Origin: Nitrospiria bacterium
Lineage (GTDB): Bacteria > Nitrospirota > Nitrospiria > DASWJH01
Assembly (NCBI GenBank): GCA_036397255.1
Contig: DASWJH010000120.1
Coordinates: forward strand, 1 to 35,936
Reading direction: 5' to 3'
DNA: 35,936 nucleotides
Positions 16,962-22,077 of this stretch are shown here, piece after piece (the stretch's first letter is position 1; the number at the start of each line of letters is the position of its first letter). The notes under the pieces were generated by a model. It had not been told where the DNA came from. It worked only from the letters and a program-made list of their open reading frames with translations, and did not search any database. A program made the position numbers and the translations under genes.

Positions 16962-17646
16962 ATGGATAAAATGGTCTTTTTCTTTGTTTCACTTATTTTT
17001 CTAATGTTTCCTGGAAAAGGGAACGCTATTTCCTGGGAGTACTCCGCTTCTGGTTCAGTCTTAAGTTCACAAGGGAATTTATTGAACATTTCTGGGTCTA
17101 TGCTCCTTGATGGTGAGATAAGGGATTGGCAAACATTTTTGCCTTGGGTACCCCCCTCCACTTCCTTTCAGGGAACTCAGAATGCATTTTTTATTTTTAA
17201 TTTCGACCTACACATTGGAAATTAAATTTTTATGGAGGAGGGCCATTCAGCAATCCAGGGAATGTTAATGCTCTATACTTTTTGAAATGGTTGATGTTAT
17301 TTCTCCTGGAATTTATGATTATGGCGCGCCTGATTGGTTCCTTGAAGGTAGCGGTGATTTCAATTTTTGGTTAGATCAGGTCCATACGTTTTCCAATGTA
17401 AATGGAACCCGTGCATCCCTTCAGGAAATATTCCAGCAACCTCCCGCAATGATCCGCTTTCATAATTTATTTAGTGGATCAAATTCTAATCCTTCAATTG
17501 ACCCAGGGGGTTATCTTGATCCTATCGATCCCAAACTTCAAATTACGTGGACCCGGATTGCGGCTGTTCCAGAACCTTCTGTAATATTCCTTCTCGGTTC
17601 TGGCCTTGTAGGATTGGCATTTTTTAAGAGAAAGTTAACGGGATAG
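16962..17646 (+). pseudogene. PEP-CTERM-anchored exported protein with two frameshifts
   Basis: The N-terminal part (16962-17225) has a signal peptide (FFFVSLIFLMFPGKGNA) and a beta-rich start, SWEYSASGSV, ending at a TAA. The coding sense continues in a second frame over about 17216-17283 (LNFYGGGPFSNPGNVNALYF) and in a third from about 17284 (EMVDVISPGIYDYGAPDWF). It ends with the PEP-CTERM signal: VPEPS, a hydrophobic helix, then FFKRKLTG. Each shift equals loss of one base. PEP-CTERM proteins are sorted by an exosortase and often go to the extracellular matrix. The gene is either a recent pseudogene or carries two base-calling errors. The upstream structured leader suggests it was, or is, regulated. 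Confidence 0.75.
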
Positions 17647-17670: not shown

Positions 17671-17712
17671 AAAATACCCAGCGGTCATCGGGCCGATGGG
17701 TATTTTTTATTG
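17671..17712 (+). terminator. Rho-independent terminator after the PEP-CTERM gene
   Basis: AAAATACCCA (17671-17680) is fully complementary to TGGGTATTTT (17697-17706). An inner CGG/CCG can form in the loop, and the stem is followed by TTATT. It ends 25 bases after the stop codon and separates this locus from the AAA ATPase cluster. Confidence 0.8.
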
Positions 17713-17853: not shown

Positions 17854-17882
17854 TTGACACACTTTCCACCCTCCGATACCTT
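17854..17882 (+). promoter_or_regulatory. Candidate promoter of the TPR-AAA gene
   Basis: TTGACA (17854-17859), a 17-base spacer and TACCTT (17877-17882, three of six). If used, transcription would start at or within a base or two of the ATG at 17889, giving a leaderless message. That would fit the absence of any ribosome site before that ATG. Confidence 0.4.
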
Positions 17883-17888
17883 TACGTT

Positions 17889-19247
17889 ATGCCTTCAGAA
17901 AGTGTGCCTGCACCGGATTCCATTATTGCGGCCCTGCGAGAGGCGGTTCGGGTTTCCCCAAACAGTTTGGATCTTCGGCGGAATTATGGCGATATGCTTC
18001 TAGGTTATGGGAAGGCCGAAGATGCCGAAACGGAATATCGTGAGGCCCTTTCCCTTTTTCCCCAGGACCCACAGCTCAAAGTAGGACTTGCCAGCGCCTT
18101 TTATCAGCAAGGGAAATACACCGCGTCTTTGGTGATGGTAGAGGACTTGATGAAGAGTTCTCAACCTCCTGCCCGAGGCTGTTTGTTGTATGTTCGGCTT
18201 CTGGTGCAGGATTCAAAAATTGAGGAAGCGGTCATACAGTACAAAAAAGCGGTCAAGATTGATCCTTCCGTTGCCGATTCCGATTTGGAAGAGCGGCTTG
18301 GAATTTTTCAGGATGAAGAGGAGTCGGAGATCGTTGACGGAAAAGTTAGAAACCGGGGGGGAGGGGAATCCGAAAAACCCGATCTGAGCATGGAACGGCC
18401 TACGGTGACTTTCGAGGCCGTAGGGGGGATTGAGGGGGTCAAAGAAGAGATTCAAATGAAAATTATTCATCCCTTGGCCCATCCCGAGATTTACAAAGCT
18501 TATGGCAAGGCGGTTGGCGGGGGAATTCTCATGTACGGGCCCCCGGGGTGCGGAAAAACCCATCTGGCCCGTGCAACGGCAGGTGAGGTAAAGGCGGGGT
18601 TTATTTCAGTAGGCATCAACGATGTTTTAGATATGTGGCTCGGTCAGAGTGAACGAAATCTTCATGAAATTTTTGAACAGGCTAGAAATCACAAACCCTG
18701 CGTTCTTTTTTTCGATGAGGTGGACGCCCTGGGTGCGAGCCGATCGGACATGCGGCAGAGCGCAGGGCGGCAGCTGATTAACCAGTTTTTATCTGAACTT
18801 GATGGAATCAAAACAACGAATGATGGTGTGCTTATCCTTGCGGCCACCAACGTTCCCTGGCATTTGGATTCTGCCTTTCGCCGGCCGGGCCGGTTTGACC
18901 GGATTATTTTTGTTCCCCCACCCGACGCCCCAGCAAGGGAGACCATTTTGAGAATTCTTCTTAAAGGTAAACCGACTCAGGATATCGATCATCAGCACAT
19001 TTCCAAGAAAACCGATGGTTTTTCCGGTGCGGATCTGAAAACCCTTGTGGATGTTTCCGTTGAAGGGAAGCTACAGCAAGCCATGAAAAAAGGAGTGCCG
19101 GAGCCTCTGACCACCAAGGATCTCCTTTCAGCCCTTAAAAAAAGAAAACCTTCAACAAAGGAATGGTTTTCTACGGCCCGTAACTATGCCCTGTATTCTA
19201 ATCAGGGAGGATTTTATGATGAAATTCTTCCTTATCTCAATATCTAA
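17889..19247 (+). CDS. TPR-containing AAA+ ATPase (Vps4/Cdc48-like single ring)
   Basis: 452 residues. The N-terminus (about 12-130) is three or more TPR-like helix pairs (DLRRNYGDMLLGYGKAEDAE; EEAVIQYKKAVKIDP), then an acidic/Gly linker (140-170). One classical AAA module follows: FEAVGGIEGVKEEI at 175-188, Walker A GPPGCGKT 217-224, an aromatic pore-loop MWLGQSE 249-255, Walker B VLFFDE 272-277, sensor 1 LAATN 317-321 and arginine fingers FRRPGRFD 330-337. The C-terminus has WFSTARNYALYSNQGGFYDE, as in archaeal Cdc48-like ATPases. No protease or second AAA domain. It is directly followed, with no gap, by a TPR/membrane protein, suggesting the TPRs recruit a partner for ATP-driven remodelling. 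Confidence 0.9.
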   Translation: MPSESVPAPDSIIAALREAVRVSPNSLDLRRNYGDMLLGYGKAEDAETEYREALSLFPQDPQLKVGLASAFYQQGKYTASLVMVEDLMKSSQPPARGCLLYVRLLVQDSKIEEAVIQYKKAVKIDPSVADSDLEERLGIFQDEEESEIVDGKVRNRGGGESEKPDLSMERPTVTFEAVGGIEGVKEEIQMKIIHPLAHPEIYKAYGKAVGGGILMYGPPGCGKTHLARATAGEVKAGFISVGINDVLDMWLGQSERNLHEIFEQARNHKPCVLFFDEVDALGASRSDMRQSAGRQLINQFLSELDGIKTTNDGVLILAATNVPWHLDSAFRRPGRFDRIIFVPPPDAPARETILRILLKGKPTQDIDHQHISKKTDGFSGADLKTLVDVSVEGKLQQAMKKGVPEPLTTKDLLSALKKRKPSTKEWFSTARNYALYSNQGGFYDEILPYLNI

Positions 19248-20495
19248 ATGAACCCAAACATCGAAAAAGGCCGCCTCCTGATTCAACAGTCCCGATACCC
19301 GCTTGCCGAGGAGGAGTTTCGAAAAGGGATTTCAAATGACCCCGAAGACCCTATCGCTCATGCCTTGTTGGCGGTTTCTCTTTCGAGGCAGAAAAAATAT
19401 GATGAATCCGTACAGAATGCCAAGACAGCCATTGGCCTTGCCCCGGATTTGGGGTATTGCCATTATGTCCTGGCCAGCGTTTTGGATGACAAAGATCAAA
19501 CACGGGAAGCGGAAACCGCCATCCGGGAAGCCATCCGGTTGGAACCCGATGATGCGGACTACCTCGCTCTGTTGGGAAGTCTGCTATTGCAACAGCGCCG
19601 ATGGAAAGAAGCCCTTCAAGTGGTGGAAGAAGGACTCAGGGAGGATCCGGAGCATGTGGAGTGCGCCAATTTTCGTGCAATGGCCCTCAACAAATTGGGA
19701 AGAAAAGAGGAAGCCTCCGCGTCCATTGAGGGTGCTTTGGCAAGGGACCCCGACAACGCCTCCACCCATGCCCGGCGAGGGTGGATTCTTTTGGAACAGG
19801 GAGATCAAACCCAAGCACTGGAGAATTTCCGCGAAGCCCTTCGGATTAATCCCCAAATGGTTTGGGCCAGGGAGGGGATCGTGGAGGCCCTCAAAGCCCG
19901 GAACATCCTCTATCGCGTTTTATTAAAATATTTCTTCTGGATGTCCAATTTCAGCCCTAAAGTTCAGTGGGGGATCATAATTGGGGCTTTTTTTTTCATC
20001 CGCTTCCTTAGGGAGATGGGAAGGGAGAACCCAGATCTTGCTCCTTTTGTGTTTCCCTTGATGGGTGCCTATCTTTTATTTGTTCTCCTGACATGGGTGG
20101 CCGACTCTCTTTTCAACCTGTTGTTGCGTTTGGATCGCTTTGGAAGGCTTGCCCTCTCTTCCGAACAGCTGCTGGCCTCCAATTGGATTGGGGGATGTCT
20201 TTTTTCAGGATTTGCAGGAATCGGGGGTTGGTTATTGATGGAGAATATTTTATTACTTTTTGCCGGGGTAGGTTCGGGGCTCCTGATGATCCCTATTTCC
20301 GGTATTTTTCGAGCCAATCAAGGAAAAGGGCGAAATTTCCTGATTGCTTATACCATTGGATTAGCAGGGTTTGGAATGATCTCTCTTGGGCTGGGTCTAT
20401 CGGGATTTCAGTCCGCTTCGGTGCTGGGGATTTTGTTTTTTGCGGGATGTGTATTATCCACCTGGATTTCAAATGCAGTGATTCTTCGCAGCTAA
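19248..20495 (+). CDS. TPR protein with C-terminal multi-TM domain
   Basis: 415 residues, starting at the base after the upstream stop (TAAATG), so it is coupled to the AAA ATPase. Residues 1-210 are about six TPRs (for example AEEEFRKGISNDPEDPIAHALLAVSLSRQKKYDES and ALENFREALRINP). Residues 240-412 contain about six hydrophobic helices (near 241-255, 266-290, 313-331, 333-350, 364-385 and 390-410), a Yip1-like or unassigned membrane domain. The likely topology is TPRs in the cytoplasm facing the ATPase, with anchoring in the inner membrane. Function unknown; context implies a membrane receptor or scaffold. Confidence 0.85.
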   Translation: MNPNIEKGRLLIQQSRYPLAEEEFRKGISNDPEDPIAHALLAVSLSRQKKYDESVQNAKTAIGLAPDLGYCHYVLASVLDDKDQTREAETAIREAIRLEPDDADYLALLGSLLLQQRRWKEALQVVEEGLREDPEHVECANFRAMALNKLGRKEEASASIEGALARDPDNASTHARRGWILLEQGDQTQALENFREALRINPQMVWAREGIVEALKARNILYRVLLKYFFWMSNFSPKVQWGIIIGAFFFIRFLREMGRENPDLAPFVFPLMGAYLLFVLLTWVADSLFNLLLRLDRFGRLALSSEQLLASNWIGGCLFSGFAGIGGWLLMENILLLFAGVGSGLLMIPISGIFRANQGKGRNFLIAYTIGLAGFGMISLGLGLSGFQSASVLGILFFAGCVLSTWISNAVILRS

Positions 20496-20706
20496 ATGTT
20501 TTTTATCCTTGACCACTGTTATTGCGTGGTTTTTCAAACCCTCCGAAATATTCCCGAGCTTCTTCCTTCTGGTCACCACCCAATCTAAATTTCCTCCACC
20601 TGGGGAAACAGAAACGGTTTCATCACAGAGATTGAAATTTTTCCTCCAAGATGTTATAAAAGCTGAATCTTTTTATACTTTTACTTTTACCGAAGGAGAG
20701 CTTTCT
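20496..20706 (+). other. Intergenic segment before the DUF3422 gene
   Basis: The frame of the DUF3422 gene remains open upstream to a TTG at 20509, but these 66 codons have no ribosome site and no family similarity. The segment contains a near-consensus promoter, so I treat it as non-coding. A 30-codon ORF from ATG 20496, overlapping in another frame, is also unsupported. Confidence 0.6.
20632..20660 (+). promoter_or_regulatory. Strong promoter of the DUF3422 gene
   Basis: TTGAAA (20632-20637, five of six), a 17-base spacer and TATAAA (20655-20660, five of six). The transcript would start near 20667, about 40 bases before the GTG at 20707 and its ribosome site. This allows the gene to be expressed apart from the upstream AAA/TPR pair. 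Confidence 0.6.
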
Positions 20707-22077
20707 GTGGAACCTAACCCTGGGAGAGAAATTAAAATCCCTCTCCAACGCCTTCATGAGCGGCCTAAAAAATACCTGGGGGAATGGCTCGATTTTCCGG
20801 CCCATGTTCACCATACGGCATTTCGGATGAAGAACCCTCCTTTTGAAAGGCCGGAAAGCCGCCAGCAATTTCTTCACGTTTTAAAGGCATTGGAAATTGA
20901 AGAAGCCAATTGCAATGTCATGGAAAAATTCGGGTTTGGAGTTCGGATTGAAGAGAATGGTGACCGGCTCGTAATCGTTTGGGAAGCCCACACAGAATAT
21001 TACAGTTATCAGATTTGGCATATTCCTGATGATAAAAACCTATTGTTCGATTTTGGTCCCATCAGCCTCCCTGGATTTGAGTTTCCGGTGTCCCCTTTGG
21101 GAGACCGGGTGACCTCGTTGGATATTATTTTTTCCCAGGAACCTAAAATTAAGCCCGACCTGATCAGGGGATTGTTGCCCGGCCCTCATGTTTATGGAAG
21201 CCAGGTTTTTGGAGAGGAAATTTCCATCGTCACCAGTTTTACCCCGGATGAGCATATGCGGGAGAGGTATTTAATTTTTTCCGCTTCTCCAAAAGCGCTT
21301 CTTCAACTTCTTCCCCAGGTGATTGATGCGGTGGCCACCATGGAAAATTACTATCATCTGTTGTTGCTCCCTTTTCCGGAATTCTCAAAAGCGGTTGACC
21401 GGATTCATCAGTTGGAGCAGCACCACCTGGAGCAGCGGACCAGTATTACCGCTGAACTTTCTACTTCGGATTCAAAGACGCTCCAAGGGTGGGTTAATCA
21501 GTTAACCCAGGATTTTTTGGAGGTCAGCCGTTTTGCCGAAGCCATGCGGTACCAGTTATCCGCCTCGGTACCTTATAATACAATTGTCATTTCCACCATA
21601 CGGGCCCTTCAAGAAAAACACCATCCTCCTTTTCTTCCCCTTTCGGATTATGTCCTGGGGGGAATTTCCGGGGTTGCAGATGGTTACGGGCAGTTAATCC
21701 GGCGTATTGAGGCCGTTGAATCCGATTTTCAAGGGAGTATCTCCGTGATTCGGACCCGTGTGAGCCTGATGCAACAGGAGCAGAACCTGGTTTTAGAAGA
21801 TCAAAATTTAAAATTACTCTCCAATGTGGATAAAACAACTAAAAGCCAAGCGGTTCTACAACAGACGGTGGAAGGTCTTTCCGTCATCGTGATTGCTTAC
21901 TATCTTTCCGGATTGGCCAACCATGTGTTTAAGGCCATGGAAGGGATGGGTTGGATTGCAAGTGCGACTATAGCCACCGGACTGTTTGTTCCCATTTCCA
22001 TCGGGTTTTCAATTGCTTTAATTTATTTTGGGAGGAAGTTTATTTATAAAAAAATGTGGCCAATGGGAAAAATTTAA
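20707..22077 (+). CDS. DUF3422 family membrane protein
   Basis: 456 residues from GTG 20707, chosen because AAGGAG (20693-20698) sits eight bases upstream and because family similarity begins at LQRLHERP, the usual near-N-terminal motif. Further landmarks are VIVWEAHTEYYSYQIW (the WExHTE motif), SRFAEAMRYQLSASVPYN, and a long helical stalk ending in KTTKSQAVLQQTVEGLSV. Two TM helices follow at the C-terminus (about VIVIAYYLSGLANHVF and a Gly/Ile-rich helix near GLFVPISIGFSIALIYF). The family is an uncharacterised inner-membrane protein with a large cytoplasmic domain and coiled coil. Here it follows a TPR-AAA ATPase and a TPR membrane protein, a possible functional set. Confidence 0.9.
   Translation: MEPNPGREIKIPLQRLHERPKKYLGEWLDFPAHVHHTAFRMKNPPFERPESRQQFLHVLKALEIEEANCNVMEKFGFGVRIEENGDRLVIVWEAHTEYYSYQIWHIPDDKNLLFDFGPISLPGFEFPVSPLGDRVTSLDIIFSQEPKIKPDLIRGLLPGPHVYGSQVFGEEISIVTSFTPDEHMRERYLIFSASPKALLQLLPQVIDAVATMENYYHLLLLPFPEFSKAVDRIHQLEQHHLEQRTSITAELSTSDSKTLQGWVNQLTQDFLEVSRFAEAMRYQLSASVPYNTIVISTIRALQEKHHPPFLPLSDYVLGGISGVADGYGQLIRRIEAVESDFQGSISVIRTRVSLMQQEQNLVLEDQNLKLLSNVDKTTKSQAVLQQTVEGLSVIVIAYYLSGLANHVFKAMEGMGWIASATIATGLFVPISIGFSIALIYFGRKFIYKKMWPMGKI

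What the first reader, a model, noticed from the sequence alone, without database searches (positions are those of the whole stretch)
17889..22077. TPR-AAA ATPase / TPR-membrane protein / DUF3422: candidate undescribed membrane machine
A Vps4/Cdc48-like AAA ring with its own TPR domain abuts, with no gap, a protein that is half TPR and half multi-TM. The next gene is a DUF3422 protein with a cytoplasmic domain, helical stalk and two TM helices. TPRs on both the ATPase and a membrane protein suggest docking, so the set could remodel or extract membrane proteins. No named system that I know has this composition. Domain calls are from visible motifs; the shared function is inference.
Basis: partly seen in the sequence, partly recalled or inferred. 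Interest (0 to 1): 0.8.

Follow-up and report, generated by a model that had tools for sequence, protein, structure and literature searches.

The report
Membrane-anchored AAA ATPase gene pair
Two touching genes encode a ring-type motor ATPase and a membrane protein that probably docks it; the pair recurs in at least eight bacterial phyla and was noted in print once without a function, while the third gene in the finding (DUF3422) is an unrelated neighbour.

Summary
The three ORFs exist as described. The first two form a real unit: P1 (17889-19247, TPRs plus one classical AAA domain with all catalytic motifs) and P2 (19248-20495, six TPRs plus a six-TM domain that no Pfam family matches). Their stop and start codons abut. 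Searching with P2's membrane domain alone found relatives in at least six other phyla; 29 of 29 deduplicated loci carry the same ATPase next door, 13 with a 4-nt overlap, and share no third gene. Actinobacterial plasmids carry diverged pairs.

DUF3422 is not part of it. None of 18 other genomes carrying P1 and/or P2 has DUF3422; 88 of 246 phylum genomes have DUF3422, but only the window's also has P1. Here DUF3422 most likely starts at GTG 20707, with its own Shine-Dalgarno and promoter-like site, about 210 nt after P2.

The pair is not wholly new. Ravi et al. [quoted passage not shown] Best model: P2 tethers the P1 ring to the inner membrane, where it pulls on or disassembles membrane proteins without a built-in protease. 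Docking and substrate are inferred.

The parts
17889..19247 (+). P1: soluble TPR-AAA ATPase, 452 aa
   Evidence: Pfam AAA 137 bits, TPR families, AAA_lid_3; orthologues 53-64% identical in 14-15 loci; AAA part closest to p97/Cdc48 D2 in PDB by sequence and fold
17913..18299 (+). P1 N-terminal TPR domain (residues 9-137: cap helix plus three TPR hairpins), followed by a disordered linker (141-165)
   Evidence: AlphaFold2 model, pLDDT mostly 84-93 in the TPRs, 23-31 in the linker; Pfam
18384..19142 (+). P1 AAA module (residues 166-418): Walker A GPPGCGKT 217-224, pore loop MWLG 249-252, Walker B FFDE 274-277, arginine fingers in RRPGRFDR 331-338
   Evidence: invariant or nearly invariant columns in 15-16 aligned sequences; motif names from established AAA knowledge
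19143..19244 (+). P1 conserved C-terminal tail EWFxTARNYALYSNQGGxYDDILxYLKL
   Evidence: mean column conservation 0.81; kept at the C-terminus of nearly all loci, including the diverged ones
19245..19250 (+). TAA-ATG junction, zero spacing, no Shine-Dalgarno visible for P2: translational coupling likely
   Evidence: sequence; 4-nt overlap at the same junction in 13 of 29 loci
19248..20495 (+). P2: TPR plus six-TM membrane protein, 415 aa
   Evidence: Pfam TPRs only; membrane domain has no Pfam family; orthologues 40-51% identical; AlphaFold2 pLDDT 89.7, pTM 0.73
19248..19859 (+). P2 cytoplasmic domain, six exact 34-residue TPRs (residues 1-204)
   Evidence: model; repeat register used
19860..19946 (+). 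P2 cap helix and juxtamembrane helix (WAREGIVEALKARNxxYRxxLxYF), among the most conserved stretches of P2
   Evidence: mean conservation 0.83 for residues 204-220; TPR6 and cap hold many of the lowest-entropy positions among 38 sequences
19965..20471 (+). P2 six-TM domain (residues 240-408), N-in/C-in by charge
   Evidence: helices; K+R 3.5 and 2.8 in the two inner loops against 0.3-0.6 in the three outer loops, averaged over 21 sequences
20632..20660 (+). promoter-like TTGAAA-N17-TATAAA between P2 and DUF3422 (not part of the module; separates the two)
   Evidence: only match in the window; 5 of 100 shuffles have at least one; consensus match, not proof of function
20707..22077 (+). DUF3422 gene with corrected start GTG 20707 (456 aa): a neighbour, NOT part of the module
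   Evidence: Shine-Dalgarno GAAGGAGAG at 20692-20700; homologue alignments begin near its first residues; absent from all 18 other genomes carrying P1 and/or P2

Best explanation
P1 and P2 are a self-contained two-gene module: a membrane-tethered classical AAA ATPase. P2 sits in the inner membrane with six TM helices and a cytoplasmic six-TPR arm; P1 is a cytoplasmic single-ring AAA ATPase with its own TPRs. P2 (directly, or together with a substrate) recruits the ring to the membrane through TPR contacts and/or the conserved P1 C-terminal tail. The ring then threads or disassembles membrane proteins or complexes with its aromatic pore loop. There is no protease domain, so it acts as a segregase/remodeller rather than a protease. 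Shown: the pairing and its conservation, domain anatomy, intact catalytic motifs, membrane domain, absence of a third partner, independence from DUF3422. Inferred: hexamer, docking, direction of force, substrate.
For: P2-membrane-domain searches, which do not use P1, land next to a P1 orthologue in 26 of 28 loci and 29 of 29 deduplicated loci hold both. No other gene family is common to them; the only wider clusters are antisense shadow ORFs of P1/P2. P1 and P2 distances co-vary (r = 0.89, 0 of 5000 permutations reach it, 12 loci; shared ancestry not removed). Walker A/B, pore loop and arginine fingers are conserved. The AAA part is 38-39% identical to p97 D2 with TM-score 0.73-0.76 by target length. 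P2 has six predicted TM helices with positive-inside loops. No peptidase domain in either protein. Actinobacterial plasmids carry the same ATPase (406-563 bits against at most 189 for the window genome's other AAA proteins) with a TPR-TM neighbour, overlapping by 4 nt in two of three. A published comparative study independently proposes 'membrane proximal action' (PMC11237479).
Against: No interaction, activity or phenotype is known. The groove of P2's TPRs is not clearly more conserved than its outer face (entropy 2.32 vs 2.42); only TPR6 stands out, on all faces, so a single conserved groove ligand is not indicated. The P1 model is only moderate (pLDDT 75.8, pTM 0.53). One KSB1 locus (L053) and one paralogue (L113) have P2 without an adjacent P1. 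One Verrucomicrobiota locus has a GDSL-lipase gene between the two (L058).
Confidence: 0.55

Rival explanations
1. Three-gene machine including DUF3422.
For: Same strand and adjacent in this one window.
Against: 0 of 18 other genomes carrying P1 and/or P2 encode DUF3422. 88 of 246 phylum genomes have DUF3422 but only 3 have P1, and just the window genome has both. DUF3422 relatives at 49-70% identity in the same class stand without the pair. Own ribosome-binding site and promoter-like site. DUF3422 fusions in the phylum are to glutaredoxin/ferredoxin-thioredoxin reductase and 4Fe-4S domains, not to TPR or AAA.
Confidence: 0.03
2. Bacterial ESCRT-IV: a Vps4 descendant that disassembles ESCRT-III-like polymers (PspA/Vipp1 or Snf7) at the membrane.
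For: Called VPS4-like and archaeal in origin in PMC11237479; a weak Vps4_C hit at P1 residues 402-424 (13.6 bits, cut-off 21.3); CdvC model matches at 189.5 bits (cut-off 650).
Against: No MIT domain (TPRs instead). PspA_IM30 is absent from 7 of 12 genomes tested, including the 97% complete window genome. No ESCRT-III-like gene is a shared neighbour. The 50 best solved folds are all p97/Cdc48, none Vps4.
Confidence: 0.12
3. Substrate-delivery module for a separate protease: P2 selects membrane proteins, P1 extracts them, and FtsH or another protease degrades them (like the TPR domains and adaptors of mitochondrial i-AAA).
For: TPR-type N-domains and membrane-anchored adaptors Mgr1/Mgr3 are known for Yme1 (PMC5438985). 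The window genome has several other AAA proteins, two of FtsH size.
Against: No protease gene accompanies the pair consistently; an M28 peptidase appears in 5 of 29 loci at varying distances. P1 has no HbYX-type proteasome tail (sequence).
Confidence: 0.18
4. Horizontally spread conflict or defence cassette.
For: Patchy distribution (about 1-10% of genomes in each sampled phylum); the AAA domain matches the anti-phage ATPase IetA at 123-124 bits; P1/P2 have the highest GC of 33 genes in the window.
Against: The IetA match is below the curated cut-off (124.4 of 510) and covers only the AAA domain; P2 hits PADLOC only through a generic TPR model; no defence genes recognised among the neighbours that were annotated; no effector domain in either protein.
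Confidence: 0.1

Closest known systems
Bacterial 'VPS4-like AAA+ beside TPR-6TM protein' noted by Ravi et al., mSystems 2024 (PMC11237479; example ACB74714.1)
   Same: [quoted passage not shown] the same composition in every stated respect.
   Different: They give one sentence, no name and no function. The TPRs of the ATPase itself are not mentioned there. I could not fetch ACB74714.1 to align it, so identity is by description.
p97/Cdc48 (D2 ring)
   Same: AAA module 38-39% identical; pore loop, Walker motifs, arginine fingers; segregase-type ATPase.
   Different: One AAA domain instead of two; TPRs instead of the Cdc48 N domain.
Vps4/CdvC (ESCRT-IV)
   Same: Single-ring classical AAA; weak Vps4_C-like segment.
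   Different: No MIT domain, no ESCRT-III neighbour, score far below the CdvC cut-off.
Mitochondrial i-AAA Yme1 with Mgr1/Mgr3 adaptors
   Same: AAA plus TPR-type N-domain (plants, fungi) and membrane-anchored adaptors that bring substrates at the membrane.
   Different: Yme1 is itself membrane-anchored and carries an M41 protease; P1 has neither.
EccA (type VII secretion AAA ATPase)
   Same: N-terminal TPR-like domain plus C-terminal AAA, soluble, works with a membrane system.
   Different: Different AAA clade; 31.5 bits against a cut-off of 466.65; no ESX genes here.

Membership tests
VPS4-like AAA + TPR-6TM pair (PMC11237479) | classical AAA ATPase gene adjacent to TPR + 6TM gene | tested here: met
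VPS4-like AAA + TPR-6TM pair (PMC11237479) | sequence homology to the published example ACB74714.1 | not tested
   the record was not fetched; no collection here gives it by accession
Vps4/CdvC | N-terminal MIT domain | tested here: not met
   Pfam finds TPRs, no MIT, in P1 1-165 at E up to 5
Vps4/CdvC | Vps4_C oligomerisation domain | tested here: inconclusive
   13.6 bits vs cut-off 21.3
Vps4/CdvC | NCBIfam CdvC equivalog score | tested here: not met
   189.5 vs 650
Vps4/CdvC | ESCRT-III/PspA partner in the genome | tested here: not met
   PspA_IM30 absent in 7 of 12 genomes incl. the window's; Snf7 itself not tested
Cdc48/p97 | two tandem AAA domains | tested here: not met
   one AAA domain
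Cdc48/p97 | D2-like AAA fold and motifs | tested here: met
FtsH/Yme1 | M41 metalloprotease domain and TM anchor in the ATPase chain | tested here: not met
   no such domain; no TM segment in P1
EccA | T7SS_EccA equivalog score | tested here: not met
   31.5 vs 466.65
IetA anti-phage ATPase | NCBIfam equivalog score (NF042959) | tested here: not met
   124.4 vs 510
DUF3422 (third gene) | Pfam PF11902 over cut-off | tested here: met
   145.7 vs 25 bits
CorA (considered for DUF3422) | profile-profile homology | tested here: inconclusive
   hhalign probability 0.4%, E 0.14, though aligned at the matching stalk/TM1 position

The most novel reading that the evidence does not exclude
A widespread but unnamed bacterial membrane segregase: a single-ring p97-like ATPase held at the inner membrane by a dedicated TPR-6TM receptor, working without ESCRT-III, ubiquitin-like tags or a protease, with a membrane domain of a family not yet in Pfam.
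Probability: 0.35. Interest if true: 0.75.

Novelty: new member of a known kind. Interest (0 to 1): 0.42.

Why it matters
Bacteria are usually thought to pull proteins out of membranes with FtsH-type proteases. A conserved ATPase plus dedicated membrane receptor with no protease would be a bacterial counterpart of p97 or Msp1-type extraction. The pair is simple (two coupled genes, also in culturable Actinomycetota), so it is directly testable. Removing DUF3422 from the picture also prevents a false functional label for that family.

Tried and rejected
Three-gene unit with DUF3422: rejected. A conserved third partner: looked for in 29 deduplicated loci with up to about 8 kb on either side, none found (earlier: neighbours are M28/S9 peptidases, prephenate dehydratase, LigD, UvrC, cytochromes, mostly lineage-specific). 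PspA as obligatory substrate: not supported. DUF3422 as a CorA relative: no significant profile match. Conserved TPR groove as docking pocket: groove not clearly more conserved than outer face. Plasmid search with the P2 membrane domain: nothing at E 1e-3, because the actinobacterial membrane halves are diverged. Fold search with P2 returned only TPR-type matches in the rows shown, so the membrane domain stays without a known fold match. Synteny of DUF3422 in relatives: no window gene consistently beside it. Papers: no hit for DUF3422 or TPR-AAA terms.
Full report
WHAT IS THERE. The window lies in a 3.35-Mb genome, 97% complete. Its phylum is Nitrospirota by inference: a same-phylum genome (G053) has a 16,039-base contig of the same length and gene content as MHDZ01000095.1, 'Nitrospirae bacterium GWC2_57_13'. 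P1 (17889-19247) has TPRs and one AAA domain; P2 (19248-20495) has TPRs and hydrophobic helices; the third ORF is DUF3422. P1's TAA touches P2's ATG.

CORRECTED START OF DUF3422. The TTG at 20509 is an unlikely start. A GTG at 20707 is preceded by GAAGGAGAG, and a TTGAAA-N17-TATAAA site sits at 20632-20660 (at least one match in 5 of 100 shuffles, so suggestive only). Homologues align from close to the first residues of the GTG version. The gap after P2 is therefore about 210 nt.

IS DUF3422 PART OF IT? No. In 246 genomes of the phylum, 88 have DUF3422 and 3 have a P1 orthologue at E <= 1e-60; only the window genome has both. Of 19 other genome entries that carry P1 and/or P2 (18 distinct, since G247 and G053 appear to be the same genome), none has a DUF3422 match (their completeness is mostly not told). 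In the window's class DUF3422 is present in 18 of 30 relatives at 41-70% identity, and in the ten of those loci that were fetched no P1 or P2 orthologue stands beside it.

IS P1-P2 REAL? Yes. A scan of 84,980 species with P2's membrane domain gave 18 loci in KSB1, Nitrospirota, Calditrichota, Chloroflexota, Verrucomicrobiota, Planctomycetota and Fibrobacterota, most with a P1 orthologue of 53-64% identity directly upstream. A profile of the membrane domain alone, applied to whole genomes, matched 2 of 242 (Nitrospirota), 1 of 151 (phylum of a Chloroflexi MAG), 9 of 151 (of a Fibrobacteria MAG), 14 of 195 (of a Verrucomicrobia MAG) and 4 of 40 (of a Calditrichia MAG). For the last three searches, 26 of 28 loci have the ATPase directly upstream on the same strand. 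One of the two exceptions is a second paralogue; the other is the locus with a 756-nt stretch before P2. Read more widely, 29 of 29 deduplicated loci hold both genes, 13 with a 4-nt overlap, and no third gene recurs. Exceptions outside that set: L053 (KSB1) has P2 with no P1 nearby, and L057 and L070 are cut by contig ends. Chloroflexota have two tandem P2 copies (L057, L062, L064). P1 and P2 pairwise distances correlate at r = 0.89. On actinobacterial replicons (Nonomuraea, Streptomyces goshikiensis, Actinomyces oris) a P1 relative scoring 406-563 bits, against at most 189 for the window genome's other AAA proteins, is followed by a diverged TPR-TM protein. The distribution is broad but sparse, which fits horizontal spread; P1 and P2 have the highest GC of the 33 genes in the window, a weak sign of import.

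ANATOMY. P1: cap helix and three TPR hairpins, a disordered linker, an AAA module with all motifs intact, and a strongly conserved tail that ends the protein. In the PDB the AAA part is closest to p97/Cdc48 by sequence and by fold (D2: 38-39% identity, TM-score 0.73-0.76 by target length). MIT is absent; Vps4_C is sub-threshold. P2: six exact 34-residue TPRs, cap helix, juxtamembrane helix, six TM helices (pLDDT 89.7, pTM 0.73). Loop charges put the N-terminus, the C-terminus and the TPRs in the cytoplasm. The membrane domain matches no Pfam family, and the fold search returned TPR-type matches in the rows shown. The most conserved region is TPR6 plus cap and juxtamembrane helix, not the TPR groove as a whole.

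HOW IT PROBABLY WORKS. Shown: a conserved, coupled pair with an active-looking AAA motor and a membrane protein carrying cytoplasmic TPRs, with no protease and no third partner. Inferred: P2 tethers the P1 ring at the inner membrane and helps it grip membrane substrates; the ring extracts or disassembles them. Contact could be TPR to TPR, or P1's conserved tail to P2's membrane-proximal TPR6/cap; my data prefer neither. Confidence 0.55.

WHAT IS KNOWN. Ravi et al. [quoted passage not shown] My independent six-TM count agrees. [quoted passage not shown] The pair is therefore noted, unnamed and, in the papers I could search, uncharacterised. PspA, the bacterial ESCRT-III relative, is missing from 7 of 12 genomes tested, the window's among them, so an ESCRT-like job on PspA is not the general answer. 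TPR-type N-domains and membrane adaptors of mitochondrial i-AAA (PMC5438985) are the nearest functional analogy.

VERDICT. The finding is partly right: a genuine two-gene membrane AAA module, recorded once in the literature without function, next to an unrelated DUF3422 gene. Interest 0.42; novelty: new member of a known kind.

Noticed in passing
L049:6844-8715 and L050:6823-8658 (other genomes of the phylum): DUF3422 fused behind glutaredoxin and ferredoxin-thioredoxin reductase catalytic beta domains; in L044 and L045 DUF3422 follows a Cys-rich 4Fe-4S ferredoxin-like N-terminus (weak Fer4 hits). This suggests a redox link for the DUF3422 family.
   Followed up: partly
window 21853-22040 (DUF3422 C-terminus): Family motif LQxTVEGLSVIVIAYYLSGLAxYVFKAL joins the stalk helix to TM1; CorA aligns at the equivalent place but without significance.
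   Followed up: partly
window 17854-17888: TTGACA-N17-TACCTT ends 6 nt before P1's ATG and no Shine-Dalgarno is visible: P1 may have a leaderless mRNA. The second hexamer matches the consensus at only 3 of 6, so this is weak.
   Followed up: no
window 17287-17646: Small ORF ending in a PEP-CTERM sorting signal (27.9 bits), followed by a terminator-like hairpin at 17685-17699; it may be the remnant of a longer gene, since another short ORF lies just upstream at 16962-17225.
   Followed up: no
L058:6436-7389: A GDSL lipase gene sits between P1 and P2, overlapping P2's start by 4 nt, in a Limisphaerales MAG; in the related L065 the same gap is 756 nt with no long ORF detected.
   Followed up: no
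L057, L062, L064: Tandem P2 paralogues in Chloroflexota, suggesting a hetero-oligomeric membrane part there.
   Followed up: no
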